DNA of 64,000 nucleotides from Zoogloeaceae bacterium G21618-S1 (GTDB lineage: Bacteria; Pseudomonadota; Gammaproteobacteria; Burkholderiales; Rhodocyclaceae), in assembly GCA_027214125.1 (NCBI GenBank), contig JAPWHF010000007.1:62001-126000 (forward strand). Direction: 5' to 3'. The notes below the pieces were generated by a model. It was not told the DNA's origin. It was given only the letters and a program-made list of their open reading frames with translations, and did no database searches. Positions 25,755 to 52,777 of the stretch are shown in pieces (within the stretch, counting starts at the first letter, position 1; each line of letters starts with the position of its first letter). Position numbers and translations under genes: made by a program.

Positions 25755-25840
25755 GCCGACGTGGTGAAATTGGTAGACACGCCATCTTGAGGGGGTGGTG
25801 ACGTAAAGTCGTGTGAGTTCGAGTCTCACCGTCGGCACCA
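25755..25840 (+). tRNA. tRNA-Leu (anticodon GAG)
   Basis: An 86-nucleotide class II tRNA with a long variable arm and encoded CCA. The acceptor stem GCCGACG (25755-25761) pairs with CGTCGGC (25830-25836). The anticodon stem CCATC/GGTGG surrounds the loop TTGAGGG with anticodon GAG at 25789-25791. The T-arm GTGAGTTCGAGTCTCAC is complete. It reads CUC and CUU leucine codons. Confidence 0.97.
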
Positions 25841-41306: not shown

Positions 41307-42309
41307 TCAGTCCGCTTCCATGACCAGGCGGATGCCCACCAAGGTGTAGCGCGTGACCGGCGTATTCCAGTTTCGATAGGCACAGCGCGCATACAGCGGC
41401 CAGGTGTGCCACGACCCGCCCCGGCGCACCTTCACCCGGCCCGCGTCCGGCCCCTGCGGATCATCCTGCGGCGAGTGGGCATAGTAGGTGGCGCCATGCC
41501 AGTCAGCCGTCCATTCCCACACGTTGCCGTGCATGTCGTGCAGGCCAAAGGCGTTGGGGGCAAATTGGCCAACCGGCGCGGTAAACGCAAACCCGTCGGC
41601 GGTCGGCAGCGCGAAGGCTTGCCAGTCGGGCCAGTTCACTGCCGCGTCGGTGTCAAACACATTGGCCACCGTGCTCAGTGCTCAGCGAAGCCGGCGCATC
41701 ACCACTGTGATACTGCGTGCTCGTGCCGGCGCGGCAGGCGTATTCCCATTCCGCCTCCGTCGGCAGGCGGTAGCGGCGCCCCTCGGTGGCACTCAGCCAG
41801 CGGGCCAGTGCCACGGCGTCGTGCCAAGTCACATTCACCACCGGGTGAGCATCGCTCTGCGCAAAGCCCGGGTTTTGCCACGAATAGCGCGGGTGCCGGC
41901 CCTCGAAAGCGTCCCCCCGTTTGGTGGTGGCGGGATTATAGGCGGCGTTGTAGCCATAGCCGCCGGTGCCGTCGGTGATCGATTCGGGCACATGGCCCGA
42001 GGCATCGATGAACTGGCGGAACTGGCCGACCGTCACCTCGTGTTTCGCCATGTAGAACGGCCGCGTGATGCGCACCCGGTGCGCCGGGGTTTCGTCGGCA
42101 AGGTCTGCCAGTCGGCGCGGTTCATAAGCCGGGTAGAGCGCGCTCATGGTCTCGATGGAGGCCGCATTGCCCATCGTAAATTCGCCGGCCGGCACCAAAG
42201 CCATCTGCATGCCTAAGCTGTTGGTGGTCGTCGTGGGTATGCTCGCGCAGCCGGCCAGAGCGATGCAGGCCATCGCGGTGATCCATTGTGTGACGCTGCT
42301 GCCGTTCAT
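41307..42309 (-). pseudogene. Formylglycine-generating-enzyme-like (SUMF1) lipoprotein gene, frameshifted
   Basis: Two adjacent minus-strand frames encode consecutive parts of one SUMF1/FGE-sulfatase-domain protein. The first, from an ATG at 42309, has a lipoprotein signal (CIALAGCAS near residue 17-25) and runs through [20 protein letters not shown] to [10 protein letters not shown]. There it leaves frame. The second resumes at [10 protein letters not shown] (near 41670) and contains HGNVWEWTADWHG and the closing VGIRLVMEAD. A 7-bp tandem duplication (41671-41684) lies exactly at the junction; removing one copy restores one frame of about 331 residues. The protein would be an outer-membrane-anchored or periplasmic member of a family that includes formylglycine-generating and peptide-modifying enzymes. 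A GGGAG site precedes the ATG. The gene is inactive as read unless slippage restores it. Confidence 0.85.
41671..41684. repeat. 7-bp tandem duplication that breaks the SUMF1-like gene
   Basis: GTGCTCA occurs twice in a row (41671-41677 and 41678-41684). On the coding strand this reads TGAGCAC twice and shifts the frame by +1. Deleting one unit makes the frame continuous (LSTVANVF). Confidence 0.9.
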
Positions 42310-42675
42310 GATGCTCCCCGTCGCGGCGCTTATAGCCGCGCGTGCGCGTGTCTGGTGGGGCGTTCGCCTCAATTTTGAGGCGCGCCATGCGAGAGCGCAG
42401 CATGCCACAGCGGCGCATGCGCGCGGGATGAAAATCTCAAAATCTCCCGAAATGCTCCGACGAGAATACCGAACGGGTGTCAGCGCATAGCCGCAACCGT
42501 GGTCCTCTCACCCGGAGCAGCCATCTAACCATCTTTGGTTCAGGGCCTAAAATGTTTCGCCAAGCAGACGCTCAATGTATGCGTGGCGGCTCCGAGTTTG
42601 ACATCAACGTACTTTCTCGCAAGCCTCAATGGTAAGCTAGCGGAGACGACAAAATTGCCATCAACATAATGATGA
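42310..42675. other. 366-base gap between the SUMF1-like gene and the accessory island
   Basis: No convincing gene is seen. The left part carries the SUMF1-like promoter on the minus strand. From about 42530 the composition becomes more AT-rich. A TTGACA is at 42598-42603, but no good -10 box lies at the right distance, so the island promoter is undefined. A 5-bp hairpin AACCA/TGGTT is at 42527-42540. I found no direct repeats shared with the other end of the island. Confidence 0.5.
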
Positions 42676-43587
42676 ATGGGAGCGCTAGTGAAGTTACCGG
42701 ATACGGCTGAGTCCTTCGTTGACTCGGTTCGCACTAACAGTAAGCTACTTATCGAACGAGGTTTCTGGGAAATTCCAACTCCTCGCATTGAGAGTTGGTT
42801 CCGGCAATTTTGTGGCCCGGAAGAACGCTTCTTTGCTGCTTGTTTACTCGACCAAGTAATATTTCGGACAAGGCAGCAGTTTGAGGCTGCGCTCCGATCT
42901 CTTTTTCGAAGTAATCTCAATGGAAACCTCTATTCAGGGGCCGAAGACCTCCAATTGTTAGAGATGCTCAAAGGCAGAACGGATCCGAAGGTAAGATTGG
43001 TTCCCGTTATTTGCGAAACAGACGCTCCGACGAAGTCCGGTCCCCTGGTTTTGCGGCGATTGCAAAGAATTCTTCTTCTAAATGCGAAGTGGATGTGTTG
43101 GCCATGGCAGGCAGTCAAGGCAGTTGAAGATGGTTCGGTCGAAACAATTCTGTTTGTCGATGACTTTCTCGGATCCGGTGGGCAGTTCGAGGGGTTCTTT
43201 CGCCAGTGGCACTTCGACAAGTACCTAGATAGTCGAATAAGCCACTTCTACGCTCCGGTAGTAGCACATCAGAATGGCATCGATCATCTCGCTAACACGC
43301 TCCCACAGGTGTGTGTGGTGTCTGCGGAGACGCTTGGCCAATCACACGATTTCTTTTCCGCAGCGGTCTGGGAGCGTCTCGGGCACAACGGCTGCGTGAC
43401 AGTCGATGATGCAACGTCCTGGTATCTAGATTTTAGTAGAAAAAAAAATTGTGCCCCGAAAAGCGTTCCGCCGCTCGGATATGGTGATCTTGCACTAACG
43501 TTTGGTTTTAGCCACTCGACCCCAAACAACTCGCTTCCAATTCTTTGGTACTGGTCTGCCGAATGGCAGCCGCTCCTTGAGCGCTGA
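42676..43587 (+). CDS. Phosphoribosyltransferase-like protein of a conflict/defence operon (PRTase-CE-like)
   Basis: A 303-residue soluble protein. Its core hydrophobic strand plus loop ILFVDDFLGSGGQF (residues 158-171) has the form of the PRPP-binding loop of type I phosphoribosyltransferases (strand, two acids, small residues, Gly-Gly). The C-terminus FSHSTPNNSLPILWY fits a family I recall from comparative genomics as a PRTase associated with biological-conflict systems; I could not verify this by search. The N-terminal 100 residues form a helical part without known motifs. The ATG at 42676 has no good Shine-Dalgarno; the GTG at 42688, with GGGAG six bases before it, may be the true start. 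It is the first of three overlapping or nearly overlapping genes. Substrate and product are unknown. Confidence 0.65.
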   Translation: MGALVKLPDTAESFVDSVRTNSKLLIERGFWEIPTPRIESWFRQFCGPEERFFAACLLDQVIFRTRQQFEAALRSLFRSNLNGNLYSGAEDLQLLEMLKGRTDPKVRLVPVICETDAPTKSGPLVLRRLQRILLLNAKWMCWPWQAVKAVEDGSVETILFVDDFLGSGGQFEGFFRQWHFDKYLDSRISHFYAPVVAHQNGIDHLANTLPQVCVVSAETLGQSHDFFSAAVWERLGHNGCVTVDDATSWYLDFSRKKNCAPKSVPPLGYGDLALTFGFSHSTPNNSLPILWYWSAEWQPLLER

Positions 43588-43589
43588 TC

Positions 43590-45563
43590 ATGACTCACAA
43601 ACTACCTGACGTATTCTCAAAAAATCGCAGCGAGGAAACGAATGAAGACATCTGGTCCGACTTCGTGGTGCCACCATTTCTTAATGATCTAGGAATCAAG
43701 ACGCAGAGCAAGGCCATCGTGATCATTGGTGGGCGTGGATGCGGGAAGACGACACTGTTGCGTTATTTCTGTCATGCCACCCAGTTCTCCCCAAGGCGAG
43801 CCAATGTGCCGCAAGCGGAACTCGCGCATATTGGTCTCTATTGGAGGGCTGATACAAACTTTCTCAATTCCTTTGCCGGAGGAGGCCAGGGACCCGAAAC
43901 GTGGCGAGCTGCGTTTGAGCATGTTTTGGCCTGCGAGCTGGGAAAGGAGATTATTCAGGCTGTTCGCAACCTAAACTGTAATCCGGATCGCCAGCATGCG
44001 TACGGGAAAATTGAGGAGCTCGACCTCGAAGCGCTTCAGGATTTCGATGAGACGCTAGGAAGAACGCTACACGAACTGGAGCGAGCGCTTCAAAAAAATC
44101 GGCGAAAACTTTCGATATGGCTCAATAATATTGACGTCGTACCACGACCGATTTTCCTGCCCGCGCAAACCTTCCTGAAGGCATTGGTCGAGACGCTTCA
44201 GGTGCAGCTGCCGTATCTTAGCGATTCAACTTTTGCCGTGTTTATTGACGAGTACGAAAATCTTCGTATCGAGCAGCAAAAGTTTATTAATGGCATGTTG
44301 AAGCACGGTGAGCCACCACTCCTCTACAACATTGCCATGAAGCGTAATGGTTGGCACACAACCCAAACCCTAGGCTCAGAATCGATTCAGGTTATTTCCG
44401 ACTATCGAGAGATCGACCTCGAAGGAGAGGTTGCCAAGGATTTCGATTTGTTTGCGGCTGAGCTTCTATTTTTTCGCTTGGCCGAGCATGCACCTTATCT
44501 TTTGGATAAGCTCCCTATAATCCCTGAGCAATTGCGTTCAATTGATCAGATTGAGCTTCGCTACAAAAATAGAGATTATCGGGATCGGGTTATCGGAGCG
44601 GCGGAAGCGCTGCTTCCTCGCACAACTGATCGCGGGGCAGCGAAGGCAATTCTTGCGGATCGTCGATTGCGTGATAGCCTTATTGATAAAATCCATGGTG
44701 CGTTGTTGAAGCGTCGATCAGTGATTGTTCCGTCGAATTTTATTGACGACAACTACCCAGAAGCTTCAGTTCTGATGTCGGCTTTGTTGTGCCGCCCACG
44801 CGAAGACCCAGATCGGCTGCTTACAGAGTTTGAGGCATTAAAAACTGGGAGGGGTGGCCGCTTATCGCCAACGGGAGATTTGGTAGGAAACAACCTTTTC
44901 GGATGCGTTAACGCTATATACATAGATGCTAGAAGGGAGTCTATCCTGTTTTCAGGATTTACATCTTTAACGCTTATTTCGAGAGCCAATATACGGTACC
45001 TTCTCGAACTGATCCATCGCATCTTCAAAATTTTCGAATCTGCTGAAAATTTTGAGTTGCCGGTCGTGCCCCCCGATGTGCAAGCGAAGGCCGTAAAGGA
45101 TGCGAGCGAGTTAATTCTAGGGACCGTCAGCGGGCAAGGTGTTAACGGGCCTCAGCTCCTCAATCTTGCCCAATGCTTAGGTTCTATTTTCCTAGAGCGG
45201 CACAGAAGTGATCGGCAGAGCGAGCCGGAAATCAATCACTTCACGCTGTCTAGCGGTGACATAAACGACCGTTTAAGAATGTACATTCGCGAAGCTGAGA
45301 AGTGGTCCGTGCTATACGTCAGTCGTGAAACAAAAATGAAGTCACCTGGCGCCATTGATGACGATTACATATTGAACCCGATATTTTCTCCGTACTTTCA
45401 AATATCGTTTCGAAAGAAGCGGAGTTTGTCAATATCCGCAGCCCAATTGCTTGAAATGCTAGAAGGAGACCAGCGGGCGAGAGACTCTTTGGTGCGCGAA
45501 TTTAGTCGCCAAGGAAATGGCGGAGATGATCACCCAGATCTTTTTGATGAGGCGGGATCATGA
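43590..45563 (+). CDS. ORC/CDC6-like AAA ATPase of the accessory operon
   Basis: A 657-residue protein with an N-terminal P-loop ATPase. Walker A is IIGGRGCGKTTLL (residues 45-57) and Walker B with a catalytic acid is FAVFIDEYENL (215-225). The intervening region, with a long helical stretch at about 105-205, is typical of ATPases that sense or remodel DNA or protein partners rather than of transporters. The rest (about 300-657) holds no motif I recognise; its last third is hydrophilic and ends in a charged tail. It starts two bases after the PRTase-like gene and overlaps the next by four, so all three are one translational unit. Many codons are AT-ended (tta, ata, aaa), unlike flanking genes. 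I infer a regulatory or triggering role. Confidence 0.7.
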   Translation: MTHKLPDVFSKNRSEETNEDIWSDFVVPPFLNDLGIKTQSKAIVIIGGRGCGKTTLLRYFCHATQFSPRRANVPQAELAHIGLYWRADTNFLNSFAGGGQGPETWRAAFEHVLACELGKEIIQAVRNLNCNPDRQHAYGKIEELDLEALQDFDETLGRTLHELERALQKNRRKLSIWLNNIDVVPRPIFLPAQTFLKALVETLQVQLPYLSDSTFAVFIDEYENLRIEQQKFINGMLKHGEPPLLYNIAMKRNGWHTTQTLGSESIQVISDYREIDLEGEVAKDFDLFAAELLFFRLAEHAPYLLDKLPIIPEQLRSIDQIELRYKNRDYRDRVIGAAEALLPRTTDRGAAKAILADRRLRDSLIDKIHGALLKRRSVIVPSNFIDDNYPEASVLMSALLCRPREDPDRLLTEFEALKTGRGGRLSPTGDLVGNNLFGCVNAIYIDARRESILFSGFTSLTLISRANIRYLLELIHRIFKIFESAENFELPVVPPDVQAKAVKDASELILGTVSGQGVNGPQLLNLAQCLGSIFLERHRSDRQSEPEINHFTLSSGDINDRLRMYIREAEKWSVLYVSRETKMKSPGAIDDDYILNPIFSPYFQISFRKKRSLSISAAQLLEMLEGDQRARDSLVREFSRQGNGGDDHPDLFDEAGS

Positions 45564-46501
45564 CCCAGCCTAGTTACACGTTCACCTCAAGCCGATTGCC
45601 GTCGGTACCACCAGCACTGGCGGGGGTAGATATAGCATTTGTTGGCGTATCGGTTGACGATCGTGGATACGCGACGGTCAATGCTCTCAAGGACGTAACA
45701 AAGACACTATCCGGCTTTCGCTTCGATCAGGATTACCAAGAGATTTACCTCAACGACCAGCAGACCAATCGGCAACGCCTCATTGAGCACATGGACGGTT
45801 GCAGCCGTATTCTGATTGACGCAACGACGCTGGGGCTCGGCGAGATTTTGCATATCCTCATGGCGGCCCGCCAAGGAGGTCATAAGGCCGTGGAATTTCT
45901 TTATGCAGAGCCAATAAAATATACAGAGAGTAAGACTGCGACAAAAGAGGAGCCTCAGCGTCGCGACTTTGCGCTGACAACGAATTGCCGATTTCAAGCC
46001 GTTCTCGGGTTCGCGCACGAATATCAGTCAAACATGAAGGCCGCTCATGTTTTTATGCTTGGGTATGAATCCGCTAGAATCCGAAACGCATTTGAGCAAC
46101 TCGGAGAACGAGACCGATCTCGATATGGTGTCTACGCGATTATTGGTGTTCCTGCATTTCAGAGTGGATGGGAATCAAATTCTATCCGCCCACACTTGCA
46201 CGTGTTGGAGGAGTTGGATATTGACGAACACTCAGTCGTGTACTGCCAAGCAAATTCAATACGTGAGACGTATCTGACGCTTTGGGAGCTTTACCGTCAG
46301 TTGGGAGACGAAAGCGGATGTTTCTATGTGTCGCCCATTGGTACAAAACCGCATGCTGTTGGCGCAGCTCTATTTCTGCTAGAAACGAAGGGATGCGAGC
46401 CGACGACGTCGCTCTATTATGACCATCCCGTACGTGTGAATAAAAGATCAGAAGGAAATGCGACGTGGCATCACGTGACGGTCAGGTTGGTGGAACGGTA
46501 A
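45560..46501 (+). CDS. Rossmann/CARF-like protein of the accessory operon, unknown function
   Basis: A 313-residue protein that I do not recognise by name. It shows two alpha/beta halves. The first has VDIAFVGVSVDDRG (residues 23-36) and the pattern SRILIDATTLGLGEILHIL (82-100), then a strand VEFLYAEP (111-118). The second has AAHVFMLGYESARIRNAFEQ (161-180). Near the end is FYVSPIGTKPHAVGAALFLL (255-274), followed by a strand with VRVNKR. The loop SPIGTKPHAVGAALF recalls the Gly-Thr-Lys loop of CARF and SAVED nucleotide-sensing domains, so it may bind a nucleotide signal; this is inference from pattern only. It ends 17 bases before the 3' end of the convergent methylase gene. Confidence 0.45.
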   Translation: MTQPSYTFTSSRLPSVPPALAGVDIAFVGVSVDDRGYATVNALKDVTKTLSGFRFDQDYQEIYLNDQQTNRQRLIEHMDGCSRILIDATTLGLGEILHILMAARQGGHKAVEFLYAEPIKYTESKTATKEEPQRRDFALTTNCRFQAVLGFAHEYQSNMKAAHVFMLGYESARIRNAFEQLGERDRSRYGVYAIIGVPAFQSGWESNSIRPHLHVLEELDIDEHSVVYCQANSIRETYLTLWELYRQLGDESGCFYVSPIGTKPHAVGAALFLLETKGCEPTTSLYYDHPVRVNKRSEGNATWHHVTVRLVER

Positions 46502-46518
46502 CGCGGTCGATTATCTGC

Positions 46519-47727
46519 TCAGGACAGAAGGGGCATGTTCCAGAGCGTCTGAATCGGCAAGTGCTTAGCGCAACTGCCACTGGCATTCATAATCCGCCAT
46601 TCGGCACCGAACGAACTCGAAAGTGTTTTCCACACGCGAGCGTGGTTGCGTTGATCAACCGAGAGTCGATAGATGCAGTCTGTAAAGAGGCCGGCCCCCC
46701 CGCTTACTCGAGCTTGCCGAACGAGGCATCTGGTTCCTACGCGCGGAATGAGAATATCACCTTGTCGAGCTGAATGAAATGTGTTATGTGCAGACCCTTT
46801 CAGGAAAACCTCCTCTATTGCCCCTGGGAAGTCCGTCGTATGAAATGCGCGAAGGCCTAAGCGTTCAAATTCACGTTGCGACCGACTGCCACGGGTAATC
46901 GAAGCTCCGATAGACGCGAGCGTGTCCGATATTGTGTCTGCTCGAACATTGATGCGCTTGAGCGCTTGGTGATAATCGATGTCGAGACTGGTAGTTGCGG
47001 CGCTGTAGCTTATTTCGATTTCGTCGATGATGGTGCCGTCGGCTTTTGCTTTACGCAGCAATACATTCCTGCGCCGATGAGCCGTCCGCTGGCCGGCGAT
47101 CATGAACGCTCGTACTTGTGCGTTTTGGAATGTGCCCTCGTCCAGTTGCGTTACGCACAGACCGCGTAGTTCGCCAACCAATCGTCTCCGCAAGATGCGG
47201 TAGGCCGAATCCCTGATCATCGGTGCTGCGACTATTAGCCCAATGTGTGTACCGCGTTCGGCCAATTCCCAGGCGCGAGCGAGGAAGGCGACGTCTCCGC
47301 GTATCCATTCGCCGCCGCCGACTGGGAATGACAGGCCGGACACGGCAAGTATTTCTTCGAGTTCTGGCGTCGACGGTATGGTGCTGTACGGAGGGTTGCT
47401 GACGATTAAATCAGCATGGATAGGCGACTGCCATGTGCGCTTCAATACGTCGGACTGGATGACAGTCGTCCGGCTTGGGAACACCGCCTCAAGAGCTGGT
47501 ACGTTTGTTTTGTCAATTTCAACGAGCGTTGCGGTAGCTGAGGCGTTTCGCTCTAGTACGGCTTTGGCTAGAGCGCCTTTTCCTGCACCTAGGTCGAGAA
47601 CGCGAAGCGCCTCGCTGGCATCGACAAGAATCGATTCAGCGAGGAGTGCGGCAATTGGCTGTGGTGTGAACACTTGACCTAAACGGTCGGCCGTATCGCG
47701 GGCGCGTCGGTAACGTAGGTTTGCCAT
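46519..47727 (-). CDS. N6-adenine DNA methyltransferase of the accessory island
   Basis: A 402-residue protein with QVFTP (18-22), the SAM-binding LDLGAGKGAL (44-53) and the adenine-methylase NPPYS (111-115) in the gamma/M.TaqI-like order. The C-terminal half has a target-recognition-like segment (GDILIPRVGTRCLVRQ) resembling type II and type I/IIG specificity modules. The ATG at 47727 gives MANLRYRRARD; a TTG ten codons upstream (47757) is a less likely start. No endonuclease is found beside it; the convergent operon is the only neighbour that could supply an effector. It resembles, but is not a copy of, the methylase at 19445-20719. Confidence 0.85.
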   Translation of the reverse strand: MANLRYRRARDTADRLGQVFTPQPIAALLAESILVDASEALRVLDLGAGKGALAKAVLERNASATATLVEIDKTNVPALEAVFPSRTTVIQSDVLKRTWQSPIHADLIVSNPPYSTIPSTPELEEILAVSGLSFPVGGGEWIRGDVAFLARAWELAERGTHIGLIVAAPMIRDSAYRILRRRLVGELRGLCVTQLDEGTFQNAQVRAFMIAGQRTAHRRRNVLLRKAKADGTIIDEIEISYSAATTSLDIDYHQALKRINVRADTISDTLASIGASITRGSRSQREFERLGLRAFHTTDFPGAIEEVFLKGSAHNTFHSARQGDILIPRVGTRCLVRQARVSGGAGLFTDCIYRLSVDQRNHARVWKTLSSSFGAEWRIMNASGSCAKHLPIQTLWNMPLLS

Positions 47728-48156
47728 GGGCTGGATTGTTGTCGTCAGAAACTGCAACTCTACACAACGTCCATATGGAAAGGGAGTTGCCGACGCGTGT
47801 TGTTTAGCCGGAGCGAGTTTTCACCGTAAGTTGATGGGCTGTTTTTGGCTCTGGAAGGATTAAACAAGTATTAATTTTGTTTGAGCTAAAATTCCAACCT
47901 CGCGGATTTGCATGCAGCGGTGAGGGTTCCGTATGAAGGGCAAGGAAAGTCACGTTCTAGGCGGAATGCGGACCGAGCGAAGCCATCAAAGCTAAAACCG
48001 ATTCAACCGATGAGTTGCCGTTCTGTGCCCATCAAATCAGCTCACTGCATGCCGCCACCAACAAGGGAAAGGCCCAACTCCATCAAGGAGTTGGGCCTTT
48101 CTCTATAAGTCCAATGCGGCAGCAGCCTTCACCACCCACCGCATCAATCCCTCACC
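47728..48156. other. 429-base gap right of the accessory island
   Basis: No supported gene. It should carry the methylase promoter on the minus strand, but no clear boxes are seen. An AT-rich part at 47850-47895 holds the inverted repeat AAACAA/TTGTTT (47862-47867 and 47877-47882) and a TAAAAT. Short frames over 47908-48108 look like chance. A strong terminator occupies 48068-48100. Confidence 0.5.
48068..48100. terminator. Strong terminator downstream of nrdJ, usable in both directions
   Basis: A 14-bp perfect stem, AAAGGCCCAACTCC (48068-48081) with GGAGTTGGGCCTTT (48087-48100), loop ATCAA. It lies 57 bases beyond the nrdJ stop on the minus strand. It could also end a rightward transcript from the gap, but no rightward gene is seen there. 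Confidence 0.88.
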
Positions 48157-51024
48157 TCAACCGCAAGTCCCCACAGCCCCGCAGGCGGTGCAGAAGTCGC
48201 AGCCGTCTTTGCGGATCATGGAGTGGTTGCCGCACTCGGGGCAGAGCGAGCCTTGCATGAGCTTGGGTTCGCTGTCGTCGCGTGGGGCTTCGAGCAGGCC
48301 CATTTCCTGGACCGGGTAGCCGCGCTCGTCGAGGACGCCGAGCATGGCGTAGCGGTGGATGATGAGCTGGCCGAGGTAGGCCACCGTCGAGGGGTAGTTC
48401 TGCTGCTTGCGTGAGCCGGGCACGAAGGCCATGAAGTCGCCGAGCGGCTCGGGGTAGTTGAGCAGCTTACGCAGTTTCATGCCGATCCAGGCCGGGTCCA
48501 TGACGCGCATGTCGAGCGACAGGATGCGGCCCAGACCGTCGAGGGCGCGCGGGTAGTTGCCGGACAGCCACATGGAGTAGGGGCGGGTGACGCCGTCGGG
48601 CAGGGTGATTTCCTTGATGCCGAGCACGAAGTCTTCGCCAGTGGCGGGGTTCTGGATGTCGACCGTCCAGGACAGCGTGCCGTCGGTGCCGGTTTTGGGC
48701 TCTTGCAGGCTGAACAGGGAGTCGAGCACCGGGGTGGGGCCTTCGACTTCAAGCGCACCGAGCTTTTCGCAGCGATAGCTCACTACCTGAGCGAAGGCGG
48801 CAACGGCACCCGGCACCAGCTTTTTCTCGCCATGCGGGGGGAAGGCCATTTCGAAGGACTTCTCGCCGATGGTGCGCGAGAGGGTTTCGAGCTTGAGCTT
48901 GAGCCAGCCGCGGTCGTTGGTGCGCATGTCCATCGACAGCGTTTTGGCGACAGCGCCGAGGCCGCGCGGTTGGTCGGCACCATTGACCCACACTTCGAAC
49001 GGGAAGCTGCCCTTGCCGTTGTTTTCCATGTGGCCGACGAACAGACCGAACTCACCTTGCGGGGTGGACAGCATGTAGGTCCAGGCGGCGTTGCCGTCGG
49101 GCAGCTCGGGGCGGCCCGGCCAGCGCAGGGAGGACAGCACCGGGGCGGGCAGGCTCTTGATGGAGAGGCGCCGGTTGGCGTCGGTGATTTCGACGTCGTG
49201 GGGCGCTTTCTTTTCACTGCTCGGGGTGACCGACAGGACGGAGCCCAGCACCGAGTTGGGGCGGTAGGTGGCCAGGCCCTTGAGGCCGGCTTTCCAGGCC
49301 TCGACATAGAGGTGCTCGAAGTCGGCGTAGGGGTAGTCGGCCGGCACGTTCACCGTCTTGGAGATGGACGTGTCGATGTAGGGCGCGACCGCGGCGACCA
49401 TGTCTTTGTGCGCTTTGGCGGAGATTTCCAGCGCGGTGACGAAGGCCTCGGGCAGCTTGTCGACATCACCGCCGATGTGCTTGTACAGACGCCATGCGTA
49501 GTCTTCGACGGCGTATTCCTTGAAGGTGCCGTCGGCCATCCGCTTGCGGCGGGTGTAGGTGTAGGAGAAGGGCGGCTCGATGCCGTTGGAGGCGTTGTCG
49601 GCAAAGGCCAGCGAGATGGTGCCGGTGGGGGCGATCGACAGCAGGTGCGAGTTGCGGATGCCGTGCTTGCGGATCTCGTCCTTGACCTTGGTGGGCAGGC
49701 GCGAGGCAAAGTTGCCGCCCGACAGGTAGAGGTCGGCATTGAACAGCTTGAAGGCGCCGCGTTCCTTGGCCAGTTCGACCGAGGCCAGGTAGGCCTGATC
49801 GCGCATGAACTCGGAGATGCGGGTGGCCATGGCGCAGGCTTCGCGGGTGTCGTAGCGCAGGCCGAGCATGGCCAGGGTGTTGCCCAGACCGGTAAAGCCG
49901 AGACCAACGCGGCGTTTCGACTGGGCTTCTTCATGCTGCTGCTGGAGCGGCCAGTGGGTGGCTTCGAGCACGTTGTCGAGCATGCGGGTGGAGATGGCCA
50001 CCACTTTGCCGAAGCCGTCGAAGTCGAACTCGGCCTTGTCAGTCAGGGCGTTGGTGACGAAGGGCGTGAGGTTGATCGAACCCAGGCAGCAGCAGCCGTA
50101 GGGCGGCAGCGGCTGTTCGGCGCAGGGGTTGGTGGCCTCGATGGTCTCGCAGTAGTACAGGTTGTTGTCGCGATTGATGCGGTCGAGAAACAGAATGCCC
50201 GGCTCGGCGTGGTCGTAGGTCGAGCGCATGACCTGTTCCCACAGGCTGCGGGCGCGCACCTTGCGGTATACCCACTGACCATCTTCACGTTGGTAGGCAC
50301 CGGCTTCCTTGATCTCTTCGGTCGGCTCGGCCTTGTGCGCCAGCTCAACGTCGCCGTCGGCTTCGACGGCTTTCATGAAGTCGTCGGTCACGCCGAGCGA
50401 GATGTTGAAGTTGGTCAGATCGCCTTCATCCTTGGCGTGGATGAATTCTTCGATGTCCGGGTGGTCGCAGCGCAGCACGCCCATCTGGGCGCCGCGGCGG
50501 GCACCAGCGGACTCGACCGTCTCGCAGGAGCGGTCGAACACGCGCATGTAGGACACGGGGCCCGACGCGTTGGACTGCGTGCCCTTCACCAGTGCGCCCT
50601 TGGGGCGGATGCTGGAGAAGTCATAACCCACACCGCCACCGCGACGCATGGTTTCGGCGGCCTGGGCCAGCGCGGTGTAGATGCCGGGGCGGCCATCGAC
50701 GGACTCGGTCACCGAGTCGCCCACTGGTTGCACGAAGCAGTTGATGAGTGTGGCTTGCAGGTTGGTGCCGGCGGCGGAGTTGATGCGGCCAGCCGGGATG
50801 AAGCCTTTCTCTTGCGCTTCGTAGAACTTGGCTTCCCAGTGGCTGCGTTTTTCTTCGGTTTCGATGCTGGCGAGCGCGCGCGCCACGCGGCGGCGAACCG
50901 CTTCGACGCTCTGCTCGTCGCCCTTGGCGTATTTTTCGATCAGCACTTCACCGGAAATCTCTTGCGCAACAAGCGTGGATGCGTCGGCGATGGCTTTTTT
51001 TGGTGTGGAGGTAGCCTTGCTCAT
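48157..51024 (-). CDS. nrdJ: Adenosylcobalamin-dependent ribonucleoside-diphosphate reductase (class II)
   Basis: A 955-residue class II ribonucleotide reductase that makes deoxynucleotides in an oxygen-independent way using coenzyme B12. The core contains [20 protein letters not shown] (near residue 295-315), the active-site neighbourhood typical of class II enzymes, and the barrel-loop region [13 protein letters not shown] near 130. A C-terminal extension (about 620-955) ends with a zinc-ribbon-like module: CPEC, CDFC and CGAVGTCG supply the cysteines, likely those that re-reduce the active site. The first Met region [16 protein letters not shown] gives no ATP-cone, so allosteric activity control may be absent. 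It is a monocistronic unit on the minus strand, divergent from the HD-GYP gene. Confidence 0.95.
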
Positions 51025-51451
51025 GGTGTTGTCTCGTCCCTCAAAGCGTGTTCATGTCACGGTAAAAACGGCGTTCAGAATAACCGGAAGTTCAGGTAAA
51101 CGCAAAGAATTAAAAATTCAATAAAAACAATAGGTTGGTGTTTTTGATTGTGCGTCTAATCTTTTGCCTCATACTACATGTAGTAGTTCATGCGGCGCGC
51201 TGGTGCAAGGCAAAATCAATAAAAATCAGACGTTTGGCGGGATGCCTTGATGTCTCGATGCAGCATTTTTAGCGCACCTCAACCGATATGTCGGTACCGT
51301 CGGCGCGGGCGCGAGAAAGATGCCGAATGTGTGTTTGTGCGGTTAAAGAATTCGTGGCGCCAGTCGTTAAGAAGCGCAGAGGGCGATCCGTGCGTGTGTC
51401 TTGCATTGGGTTTTGCTCATGTTTTTGTGTGCAACAGACCGACCAAAGAGC
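51025..51451. other. 427-base divergent control region of nrdJ and the HD-GYP gene
   Basis: No gene is supported. It holds the nrdJ leader, AT-rich near 51100-51170, and the palindrome at 51172-51185. I looked for a cobalamin riboswitch before the B12-dependent nrdJ and saw neither its conserved B12 box nor a plausible structure. Confidence 0.55.
51172..51185. promoter_or_regulatory. Perfect 14-bp palindrome, candidate NrdR box
   Basis: TACTACATGTAGTA is perfectly self-complementary. It lies about 150 bases upstream of the nrdJ start. NrdR boxes that control ribonucleotide reductase genes are AT-rich palindromes of similar size, but they normally occur in pairs and I see only this one. Assignment is inference. 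Confidence 0.4.
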
Positions 51452-52777
51452 ATGCCTCCTGACGAAGTGACAAGGGAAGAAGCGGTTTCGTATGTCAATG
51501 CCGACGCGCTCAGCATTGGCTTGTTTGTATTCGTCGATTTGCCGTGGTTCCGGCATCCCTTTGCGTTTGATCGATTCAAGATCAAGACCGAAGGCCAGAT
51601 CGCCCAGTTGCGTGATCTGGGTGTCGCCCGGTTCCGGTTTGATCCGGCGCGCAGTGATGCACCCGTTTCGGTGTCGCGTGACTCGTCCGAATCCGTGCAG
51701 CCCACCACCGAGGATGCCGAGGAGGCCTCGGCGCCGGACCCGGACGAAGACGCCCGTCAGCAACGTCGGGCGCGGCATGCCGCGCGGCGCATGCGTATGG
51801 CGCGCGTTGAACGTGCATTCTTGCAGTCGGGCCGGGCGGTGCGAGAGGCAAATCGCAACCTGATTGCCCGACCGGCAGAGAGTCTGGCGGCGCTGAACGA
51901 AGTGCTTGGCGAGATGGCTTCTGCGCTGGCGTCTGCGCCCGAAGTCACCATTCATGCCATGGCGGATCGCATCGGTGGCGAAGAAACCTATAGCCACGAG
52001 CTGAATACGGCGGTCATGAGTCTGTTGCTGGCACGTCAGCTTGACGTGCCAGGCGCGCAAATGTCACTGCTTGGTCTGGGCGCCATGGTGCACGATATCG
52101 GCCTGGCCGAGATTCCGGATCGCGTGGTAAAGAAGCGTGAGGCGCTGACCCATGCGGAAGCCGAGCTGCGAAAATTGCATTGCGAATATGGCGTCAAGCG
52201 TGGTCACCAGATCGGCCTGCCGCCGGCTGTGCTGGCGGTGATCGGACAACACCATGAGGCCTGGGATGGCAGTGGCTTTCCCAAAGGCGTGAGTGCGGAT
52301 CGAATTCACCCGTTGGCGCGAGTGCTGGCACTGGTCAATGAGTATGACAACCTGTGCAATCCGGTTGACGTCATGCGGGCATTGACGCCGTACGAGGCGC
52401 TGTCCATGTTGTTTACCCAGCGTCGGAACCGATTCGAGGGGCGGGTGCTGCAAGCGCTCGTACGCCAGCTGGGGGTGTATCCGCCGGGCACCGTTGTGGC
52501 CTTGTCTGATGACCGCCTCGGCATGGTGGTATCCGTCAATTCAAAAGCACCCCTGCGTCCCGGGGTGATGGTCTATCAGCCTGAAATGCCTAAAGACGAG
52601 GCGGGTTTGCTCAACTTGTCGCAGGTGCCTGAGATCAATATCGCCAAGGCGATGCGCCCTGGCGATCTGCCCAGAGAGGTGTATGACTATCTCAGCCCGC
52701 GCACCCGAATTGCCTACTTTTTCGATACCGAAGTCGATATAGAAACAGATTGCTCGAACTCTCAGGAGGCCGCATGA
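51452..52777 (+). CDS. HD-GYP domain protein with DUF3391-like N-terminus
   Basis: A 441-residue protein of the c-di-GMP phosphodiesterase type. The N-terminal 60 residues ([19 protein letters not shown]) match the DUF3391-like module that precedes HD-GYP domains. A low-complexity acidic/Arg-rich linker (about 85-125) follows. The HD-GYP core shows HDIG near 213, a further His in [20 protein letters not shown] near 265, and an aspartate in VNEYDNL. The lysine usually found in HDxGK is replaced by Leu (HDIGL), so activity may be altered. The ATG at 51452 is chosen; a frame upstream opens at TTG/ATG (51401, 51419) without a better ribosome site. The stop overlaps the next gene by four bases. 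Confidence 0.88.

What the first reader, a model, noticed from the sequence alone, without database searches (positions are those of the whole stretch)
42676..43587. PRTase-like protein as a possible effector that uses PRPP or a nucleotide
The strand and loop ILFVDDFLGSGGQF looks like a PRPP loop and the end STPNNSLPILW looks family-specific, but the flanking regions do not match any housekeeping phosphoribosyltransferase. A PRTase in a conflict operon could deplete or modify nucleotides or nucleic acids.
Basis: inference. Interest (0 to 1): 0.62.

Follow-up and report, generated by a model that had tools for sequence, protein, structure and literature searches.

The report
PRTase enzyme in modular defence operon
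The gene encodes a phosphoribosyltransferase-like enzyme that sits in an apparently acquired operon with a DNA methylase, an ATPase and a nucleotide-sensor-like protein, an arrangement repeated on other chromosomes, plasmids and viral contigs that looks like an unstudied anti-phage system whose enzyme can be swapped.

Summary
It is gene 1 of a tight operon with an ORC/CDC6-like AAA+ ATPase and a protein that models as a CARF/SAVED-like nucleotide receptor, convergent with an N6-adenine DNA methyltransferase. The set recurs on chromosomes, plasmids and viral contigs: 18 of 21 distinct PRTase-ATPase-CARF loci examined have an adjacent DNA methyltransferase, of three classes. In other ATPase loci the PRTase slot holds a calcineurin-type phosphoesterase, an HD-domain protein or a thymidine-phosphorylase-like protein, so gene 1 is the interchangeable part. 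Best reading (0.55): a methylation-linked anti-phage system whose PRTase is a nucleotide-directed effector controlled by ATPase and sensor. Main rival (0.2): it makes or changes the sensor's ligand. Nothing is shown biochemically. The domain families are already named in Pfam and PADLOC; I saw no description of the whole set in the open library, but the most relevant papers were not held.

The parts
42676..43587 (+). PRTase-CE protein, 303 aa (the finding)
   Evidence: PF24390 1.2e-46; PADLOC PRTase_III-A 1.6e-18; structural matches to PRTases
43033..43041 (+). K120-S121-G122, proposed pyrophosphate loop
   Evidence: S121 and G122 15/18, K120 10/18; assignment by position relative to the PRPP loop is inference
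43147..43188 (+). PRPP loop ILFVDDFLGSGGQF (residues 158-171)
   Evidence: D162 17/18, D163 18/18, G168 18/18
43516..43548 (+). C-terminal family motif STPNNSLPILW (residues 281-291), proposed base-recognition hood
   Evidence: P283 18/18; hood role is inference; residues 259-303 of the model have pLDDT under 50
43590..45563 (+). ORC/CDC6-like AAA+ ATPase, 657 aa
   Evidence: PF24389 1.1e-101
43728..43751 (+). Walker A GGRGCGKT (residues 47-54)
   Evidence: G50, G52, K53 24/24
44247..44252 (+). Walker B D220-E221
   Evidence: D220 24/24, E221 17/24
45560..46501 (+). CARF6-like stand-alone sensor, 313 aa, CARF/SAVED-like fold, probably tandem
   Evidence: PADLOC CARF6 1.2e-85; model pLDDT 85.2; Csm6, Card1, Can2, Cam1 CARF Z about 10-12 on the second half, SAVED Z about 7-8 over both halves
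46061..46063 (+). G168 of the CARF-like protein, motif I candidate
   Evidence: 26/28
46340..46351 (+). G261-T262-K263-P264 of the CARF-like protein, motif II candidate
   Evidence: K263 28/28, G261 21/28, P264 19/28
46519..47757 (-). N6-adenine DNA methyltransferase, 412 aa, convergent
   Evidence: PF05175/PF02384, PADLOC MTase_II 1.2e-33
47386..47397 (-). Methyltransferase motif IV NPPY (residues 121-124)
   Evidence: NPP(Y/F) in 14/14 sequences of the family
42500..48000 (.). Low-GC stretch holding the four genes: G+C 0.47-0.58 between flanks mostly above 0.60
   Evidence: in relative locus L115 the NUDIX and RNR genes lie about 110 bp apart with nothing between

Best explanation
The gene is the effector module of a four-gene, mobile, DNA-methylation-linked conflict (most likely anti-phage) system: N6-adenine DNA methyltransferase, PRTase-CE, ORC/CDC6-like AAA+ ATPase, stand-alone CARF/SAVED-like sensor. 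Proposed working: the methyltransferase marks the host's own DNA; the ORC-like ATPase assembles on unmarked or replicating foreign DNA (inferred); the CARF-like protein gates the complex through a bound nucleotide ligand (inferred from fold and invariant residues); the PRTase is released or activated and uses PRPP, or a related phosphoribosyl donor, to deplete or alter nucleotide or nucleobase pools, stopping phage replication (inferred). Shown by computation: PRTase identity, conserved motif, operon, recurrence of the gene set, swapping of gene 1 and of the methyltransferase class, CARF-type fold. Not shown: any enzymatic activity, toxicity or defence. I put about 0.85 on 'it is part of a defence-type system with these four genes' and 0.55 on the effector role.
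For: PRTase-CE 1.2e-46 and ORC-CDC6-like 1.1e-101; CARF6 1.2e-85 and retron PRTase_III-A 1.6e-18. Gene gaps: 2 bp between PRTase and ATPase, 4 bp overlap between ATPase and CARF-like gene. Of 13 loci searched with the window proteins, 7 have the ATPase and all 7 have all four genes; so do 5 of 5 viral-contig loci (in one the PRTase is in two frames). In 28 loci scanned with iterated profiles the ATPase is in 24, the CARF-like gene beside it in 21 of those 24, the PRTase in 14 of 24. In the PRTase slot elsewhere: Metallophos in L081, L085, L091; HD-CE in L090, L092; a thymidine-phosphorylase-like protein in L095. Methyltransferase classes with the core: the window's family, D12, C5, N6_N4. PLSDB plasmids: 146 of 72,556 records with PRTase and 147 with the CARF-like protein at E 1e-5 or better. 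Motifs conserved in PRTase, ATPase and methyltransferase; R35 and K263 of the CARF-like protein in 28 of 28 whatever the gene-1 enzyme. Low-GC stretch and empty site. Other contexts of the family are also conflict-type loci: L041 with a reverse transcriptase, L037-L039 with NADAR.
Against: No activity data. The PRTase model is weak (pLDDT 63.1, pTM 0.59) and its best Foldseek E-value is only 5.5e-3. For the CARF-like model Foldseek alone ranks KaiC and a dehydrogenase first, Cap4 SAVED third and Card1 14th, with TM-scores by query length under 0.4, and a Z near 8, as for SAVED, can mean only a common arrangement. The thymidine-phosphorylase-like case (L095) has no CARF-like gene and no Pfam match at E 0.01. 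Three PRTase loci (L093, L094, L096) have no methyltransferase among the neighbours scanned but have HAD (3 of 3), PfkB (2 of 3) and NADAR (2 of 3) genes, which fits metabolite making as well as an effector. Ten of 24 ORC loci lack the PRTase, two of them because the contig ends, and 3 of 24 lack the CARF-like gene. That the ATPase reads methylation is inferred only from gene company.
Confidence: 0.55

Rival explanations
1. The PRTase is a signal enzyme: it makes or modifies a nucleotide that the neighbouring CARF/SAVED-like protein senses, as proposed for the PRTase and HAD enzymes of the Ter system.
For: No SMODS nucleotidyltransferase match in the host genome and no cyclase domain among the four genes, yet the CARF-like residue K263 is invariant (28/28). 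In L093, L094 and L096 the PRTase is neighboured by HAD, PfkB and/or NADAR genes. Published proposal that Ter PRTases and HADs make a nucleotide signal (PMC7824862, passages read).
Against: In loci where HD-CE or a phosphoesterase replaces the PRTase, the CARF-like gene remains with the same invariant residues; hydrolases are unlikely to make the same ligand (inference).
Confidence: 0.2
2. The PRTase acts on nucleic acid (phosphoribosylates bases in DNA or RNA), in analogy to ADP-ribosylating DarT-type toxins.
For: The same family lies directly beside NADAR-domain genes in L037-L039 (3 of 3) and near NADAR-type genes in L093 and L096 (in L096 on the other strand), and beside DNA methyltransferases.
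Against: No NADAR domain among the window proteins and the neighbours scanned in the other PRTase-ORC loci (not every gene was scanned); no known PRTase with this activity (recalled).
Confidence: 0.1
3. The PRTase-CE protein is a non-catalytic regulator that only binds PRPP or nucleic acid, as PyrR and ComFC-type relatives may do.
For: PyrR structures are among the matches (Z 7.5-7.9); PRTase domains of the competence system are discussed as taking part in DNA uptake (PMC5512222, passages read).
Against: D163 and G168 18/18, D162 17/18; replacement by other enzyme classes.
Confidence: 0.08
4. It is a salvage or housekeeping PRTase that merely hitch-hikes in the island.
For: PRTase fold.
Against: Gene-order linkage to the ORC-like ATPase and CARF-like genes across distant loci at 18-29% identity; no NCBIfam family matches at E up to 1.
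Confidence: 0.03

Closest known systems
Retron type III-A PRTase effector (PADLOC PRTase_III-A)
   Same: Window protein matches PRTase_III-A at 1.6e-18; L041, with a reverse transcriptase after the PRTase, is over the PF24390 cut-off; PRTase and winged-helix genes are described as typical of III-A1 (PMC12548924, passages read)
   Different: No reverse transcriptase among the window proteins scanned; partners here are an ATPase, a CARF-like sensor and a DNA methyltransferase
BREX
   Same: DNA methyltransferase plus ORC-Cdc6-type AAA+ ATPase (BrxD is so classified and BrxC compared with it in PMC12839542, passages read); no restriction nuclease found among the four genes
   Different: No PglZ or other BREX core domain in the four genes by Pfam; has PRTase and CARF/SAVED-like sensor
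Type III CRISPR CARF proteins and CBASS SAVED receptors
   Same: Third protein has a CARF-type fold, probably tandem as in SAVED, and a G-x-K motif like motif II of TtCsm6 (PMC10897365, passages read)
   Different: Stand-alone sensor with no fused effector and no CD-NTase or Cas10 in the operon
Ter system PRTase/HAD module
   Same: Conflict-linked PRTase; PRTase with HAD genes in L093, L094 and L096; a ligand-binding partner (PMC7824862, passages read)
   Different: No Ter domain in the four window genes by Pfam; here the receptor is CARF/SAVED-like and the ATPase ORC-like
DprA-PRTase anti-phage system of P2-like phages (PMC9122126, passages read)
   Same: PRTase proposed as effector with a DNA-binding partner; protection against T7 and lambda reported there
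   Different: Described as DprA with a PRTase; no methyltransferase, ATPase or CARF mentioned in the passages; whether its PRTase is of the PRTase-CE family was not tested here
MADS (PADLOC mad2, mad8)
   Same: The methyltransferase matches mad2 at 6.3e-23; the ATPase only marginally matches mad8 at 0.0089
   Different: No other MADS model appears among the matches listed for the four proteins

Membership tests
Pfam PRTase-CE (PF24390) | Profile score over curated cut-off across the domain | tested here: met
   160.1 bits, cut-off 27, residues 38-303
Type I PRTase superfamily | PRTase core fold | tested here: met
   45 of the 50 VIA rows are titled PRTase, PyrR or PRPP synthetase; the other five (1v9s, 7rh8, 3qw4, 2e55, 1wd5) bear other titles and are PRTases as far as I recall (2e55 is named UPRT); best Z 9.4 over 139-141 residues. 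Caveat: model pLDDT 63, best Foldseek E 5.5e-3
Type I PRTase superfamily | Acidic pair and glycine-containing PRPP loop | tested here: met
   D162 17/18, D163 18/18, G168 18/18
Type I PRTase superfamily | PRPP-dependent transferase activity | not testable with these tools
   needs purified protein
Retron type III-A | Reverse transcriptase with the PRTase | tested here: not met
   none of the five window proteins scanned is a reverse transcriptase
Retron type III-A | Retron ncRNA | not tested
   no RNA family search was run
Pfam ORC-CDC6-like (PF24389) | Profile score and Walker A/B | tested here: met
   341.8 bits, cut-off 27; G50, G52, K53, D220 24/24
CARF/SAVED superfamily | CARF-type Rossmann fold | tested here: met
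   residues 143-291 to Csm6 CARF Z 11.9; PADLOC CARF6 1.2e-85. Caveat: in Foldseek alone unrelated Rossmann-like proteins rank beside CARF and SAVED, TM-scores by query length under 0.4
CARF/SAVED superfamily | Tandem (SAVED-like) arrangement | tested here: inconclusive
   21-291 to SAVED of Cap5 Z 8.2 over 189 residues, rmsd 4.2, near the level the tool calls common
CARF/SAVED superfamily | Ligand-binding motif residues | tested here: inconclusive
   G168 26/28 and K263 28/28 fall at TtCsm6 G58 and K137 if the ends of the structural alignment are ungapped; the residue alignment was not printed
CBASS / type III CRISPR signalling | CD-NTase or Cas10 that supplies the ligand | tested here: inconclusive
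   no SMODS match in own genome; Cas10 palm profile hit exactly at cut-off (27 bits) in one 826-aa frame, with a profile that also rings in E. coli; other CD-NTase families not searched
Restriction-modification | DNA methyltransferase | tested here: met
   N6_Mtase/MTS domains, NPP(Y/F) 14/14
Restriction-modification | Restriction endonuclease in the same unit | tested here: not met
   no nuclease domain among the window proteins scanned with Pfam or PADLOC
BREX | PglZ and BREX core set | tested here: not met
   no such domain among the window proteins scanned

The most novel reading that the evidence does not exclude
A branch of nucleotide-signalling immunity without a cyclase: an ORC-like ATPase reads the lack of host DNA methylation, and a stand-alone CARF/SAVED-like protein couples it to an interchangeable enzyme (PRTase, HD, phosphoesterase) that makes, changes or removes a phosphoribosyl-type ligand, so that self/non-self DNA marking and second-messenger sensing meet in one four-gene unit.
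Probability: 0.2. Interest if true: 0.82.

Novelty: new variant of a known kind. Interest (0 to 1): 0.6.

Why it matters
PRTases recur as proposed effectors or signal enzymes in retron, DprA-PRTase and Ter systems; for the retron PRTases the mode of action was called unknown (PMC9122126, passage read). Here is a compact, mobile unit that puts such a PRTase beside a DNA methyltransferase, an AAA+ ATPase and a CARF/SAVED-type receptor, with natural replacements of the enzyme. That gives a direct test of what conflict PRTases do, and of whether CARF/SAVED sensing works in restriction-like systems without Cas10 or a CD-NTase. The plasmid-borne relatives are on mostly conjugative plasmids (132 of 146 records), mainly in Klebsiella (129 of 146), and the annotated enterobacterial records seen name the PRTase and CARF-like genes, and the ATPase where it is listed, only 'hypothetical protein'.

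Tried and rejected
Rejected: housekeeping PRTase (no NCBIfam match; constant conflict company). Rejected for the window: retron (no RT among the proteins scanned) and classical R-M (no nuclease domain found). Considered and left open: CRISPR-linked CARF; the own-genome Cas10 palm hit is at the cut-off (27 bits) and the same profile rings in 5 of 14 control genomes, E. coli among them, so it is not evidence of Cas10.

Led nowhere: sequence searches of solved structures with the PRTase, CARF and ORC profiles gave three weak PRTase or PyrR matches and one other (E 0.03-0.88), one chance hit (E 0.78), and nothing. A viral-contig scan with the single ORC protein found no relative. Paper searches: 'PRTase-CE' 0 papers; 'CARF6' with 'CARF domain superfamily', no occurrence of CARF6 in the 20 of 43 papers listed; combinations of CARF, PRTase, methyltransferase, ATPase, retron, HD and calcineurin terms (listed 20 of 20, 20 of 200, 20 of 31, 20 of 32, 2 of 2, 0, 12 of 34). 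None of the titles and abstract starts listed describes this gene set, nor do the passages I opened in PMC12839542, PMC13092281 (also outline and section 7), PMC9122126, PMC12548924, PMC5512222, PMC9503650 and PMC7824862. No paper was read whole. This covers only the open-licence library: three papers I asked for by DOI, which I recall as the CARF classification, the 2020 J Bacteriol conflict-system paper and the retron classification, were not held. I recall, unverified, that the Pfam names PRTase-CE, HD-CE and ORC-CDC6-like come from the Burroughs and Aravind work, so a prediction of this kind of system may already be in print there. One figure legend of the DefensePredictor paper lists PRTase; which system that is could not be seen.

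No mobile-element boundary repeats were recognised. The only tRNA found in the window is at 25755. One other 500-bp stretch outside the island (51000-51499) is also low in G+C (0.476). Synteny was informative in only 1 of 5 relatives taken: L115 has NUDIX and RNR adjacent; in L116-L119 RNR had no match in the 10.8-11.5 kb taken. The methyltransferase counts rest on the neighbours I scanned, not on every gene of each locus. Of 22 genomes other than the window's own over the PF24389 cut-off I took 17; left out were G770 (same coordinates as G906) and G708, G862, G956 and G984 (28-41 bits). Rows dropped before counts: L035 and L120 as near-duplicates of L034; L102 and L104 are the contig of L098; L101 left out of the PRTase conservation count because its PRTase is in two frames; L121 and L122 were not in that count either; L123 left out because its ATPase is in two genes and its CARF-like gene was not tested.

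Full report
What was checked. The ORF 42676-43587 is real and encodes a 303-aa protein matching Pfam PRTase-CE at 1.2e-46 over residues 38-303. NCBIfam has no match at E up to 1; PADLOC gives the retron family PRTase_III-A at 1.6e-18. In 18 ORC-linked sequences, the window's included, D163 and G168 are 18/18, D162 17/18, P283 18/18, R303 17/18; the last glycine of 'GSGG' is only 4/18. A model built from 7 sequences is modest (pLDDT 63.1, pTM 0.59, residues 259-303 under 50). In the structural second look 45 of 50 rows are titled PRTase, PyrR or PRPP synthetase, and the other five are PRTases as far as I recall (one is named UPRT); best Z 9.4 over about 140 residues. Foldseek alone also ranks PRTases first, but with E no better than 5.5e-3.

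The operon. After a 2-base gap from the PRTase stop begins a 657-aa ORC-CDC6-like ATPase (1.1e-101), whose end overlaps by 4 bases the start of a 313-aa protein without Pfam or NCBIfam match at E up to 1 but with PADLOC CARF6 at 1.2e-85. Convergent to these, after a 17-base gap, is a 412-aa N6-adenine DNA methyltransferase. The four genes lie in a stretch of G+C 0.47-0.58 between flanks mostly above 0.60. In a relative (L115) the NUDIX and ribonucleotide reductase genes that flank the region here are about 110 bases apart, with no match to the four genes or to the FGE gene in the locus (1 of 5 relatives informative).

The third protein. Its model is good (pLDDT 85.2, pTM 0.87). Residues 143-291 match CARF domains of Csm6 (Z 11.9), Card1, Can2 and Cam1; residues 21-291 match SAVED domains of Cap5, Cap4 and Cap14 at Z 7.4-8.2, close to what the tool calls a common arrangement. 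Foldseek alone is less clear: KaiC and a dehydrogenase come first, Cap4 SAVED third, Card1 14th (probability 1.00), TM-scores by query length under 0.4. With the PADLOC match I read it as a stand-alone, probably tandem, CARF/SAVED-like receptor. Over 28 sequences, whatever the gene-1 enzyme, R35 and K263 are 28/28, G168 and D87 26/28. If the ends of the structural alignment are ungapped, G168 and K263 fall on TtCsm6 G58 and K137, residues of motifs I and II; K137A abolished cA4 binding (PMC10897365, passages read). That residue match is inference.

Recurrence. Of 13 loci searched with the window proteins 7 have the ATPase, and all 7 have all four genes (L031-L036, L040). So do 5 of 5 viral-contig loci (L098-L101, L103; L101 has the PRTase in two frames). 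Iterated profiles found the ATPase in 24 of 28 loci scanned, the CARF-like gene beside it in 21 of 24, the PRTase in 14 of 24. In PLSDB 146 of 72,556 plasmid records have the PRTase, 147 the CARF-like protein and 151 the ATPase at E 1e-5 or better, mostly Klebsiella; neighbourhoods in Diaphorobacter, Enterobacter, Klebsiella and Cupriavidus show methylase, PRTase, ATPase and CARF-like genes together. In E. coli 4 of 5,426 complete genomes carry the Klebsiella form, all on plasmids, two of them from conjugation assays. Moraxella and Acinetobacter loci add a dUTPase. Counting L034/L035 once, there are 21 distinct PRTase-ATPase-CARF loci (window, L031-L034, L036, L040, L082, L083, L086, L089, L093, L094, L096, L098-L101, L103, L121, L122); 18 of 21 have an adjacent DNA methyltransferase (in L121 by the record's annotation). 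The exceptions L093, L094 and L096 have HAD-domain proteins of about 640 aa in all three, PfkB in two and NADAR in two.

Swapping. In the 10 of 24 ORC loci without PRTase the slot before the ATPase holds a calcineurin-type phosphoesterase (L081, L085, L091), HD-CE (L090, L092) or, before a kinase-ORC fusion without CARF-like gene, a thymidine-phosphorylase-like protein (L095; NCBIfam 7.9e-29, below that family's own cut-off and without Pfam match); L084 has an unknown 274-aa gene before a ParA-ORC fusion; L087 and L097 are cut by contig ends; L088 has no gene on the same strand there. The methyltransferase also changes class: the window's MTS/N6_Mtase family, D12 (L081, L085), C5 (L086, L090, L092), N6_N4 (L082, L083). 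In the 28 loci each strong match of the window-type methyltransferase profile (10 loci) is adjacent to the system.

Other contexts of the family. In a sample of 369 genomes of the class 6 pass the PRTase-CE cut-off: two are this system (window, L040); L041 has a small protein and a reverse transcriptase after the PRTase, as in type III-A retrons; L037-L039 have the PRTase next to NADAR, with HsdM in L037 and L039.

Interpretation. An interchangeable gene 1 with a constant ATPase and a nearly constant CARF-like gene is the usual signature of an effector slot, and the identified occupants are of classes that often act on nucleotides or nucleosides (recalled). The methyltransferase suggests self marking, as in R-M and BREX; ORC-Cdc6-type ATPases also occur in BREX (PMC12839542, passages read). 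I therefore favour an effector that acts on nucleotides, controlled by the ATPase and a CARF-type ligand sensor (0.55). A signal-making PRTase read by the CARF-like protein is the main rival (0.2), supported by the Ter proposal (PMC7824862) and by the HAD/PfkB/NADAR company in three loci. From recalled PRTase knowledge, the loop DDFLGSGG resembles the APRT/UPRT type more than the 6-oxopurine type, which has an acid at the third position after the pair; substrate choice cannot be told from that.

Novelty. The domain families are named in Pfam and PADLOC. I saw no account of the four-gene system in the searches listed under Tried and rejected, but key subscription papers were not held, so I file it as a new variant of a known kind (modular conflict system) and not as categorically new.

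Noticed in passing
window 41307-42408: An FGE-sulfatase-like gene on the minus strand is split between two overlapping frames (41653-42408 and 41307-41669), probably a broken gene; it lies beside the island and neither part has a match in L115.
   Followed up: partly
L093 10035-12581, L094 9890-12993, L096 8829-12443: PRTase-ORC-CARF loci without a methyltransferase among the scanned neighbours carry HAD-domain proteins of about 640 aa (3 of 3; the N-terminal part looks SIS-like to me, only a weak NagB match), PfkB kinases nearest ribose-1-phosphate kinase (L094, L096) and NADAR-type N-glycosidases (L093, L096): possibly a ribosyl-metabolite cassette.
   Followed up: partly
L095 4784-9713: A thymidine-phosphorylase-like protein precedes a protein kinase-ORC/CDC6-like fusion of 1239 aa.
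   Followed up: partly
L084 2672-7052: ORC/CDC6-like ATPase fused to an N-terminal ParA/AAA_31 domain, preceded by two genes without Pfam, PADLOC or NCBIfam match at the thresholds used.
   Followed up: partly
L037-L039: PRTase-CE genes lie beside NADAR (with a type I specificity domain in the same protein in L039) and, in L037 and L039, HsdM; L037 also has an HsdR-like protein: an R-M variant with PRTase and NADAR.
   Followed up: partly
L121 5282-5947, L122 4365-5003: A dUTPase_2 gene precedes the PRTase in Moraxella and Acinetobacter versions; the Acinetobacter one ends next to tRNA-Val.
   Followed up: partly
L092 5221-7966: Defence candidate PDC-M33AB lies between a C5 methyltransferase and the HD-CE/ORC/CARF genes, with a DUF6339 gene.
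   Followed up: no
L120 (pKPHS2) and plasmid record of hit H205: The system is found on enterobacterial plasmids that can carry resistance genes (blaTEM-1 within 7 kb in L120); in H205 the ATPase match is broken by an ISKpn26 transposase.
   Followed up: partly
L123 4684-9410 (Rhizobium plasmid): PRTase-CE followed by two genes, the second matching only the C-terminal half of ORC-CDC6-like, near a SIR2-family gene.
   Followed up: partly
own genome G000:C44:22612-22926 (L105): A Cas10-palm profile hit exactly at cut-off in an 826-aa frame, probably a GGDEF protein; not resolved.
   Followed up: no
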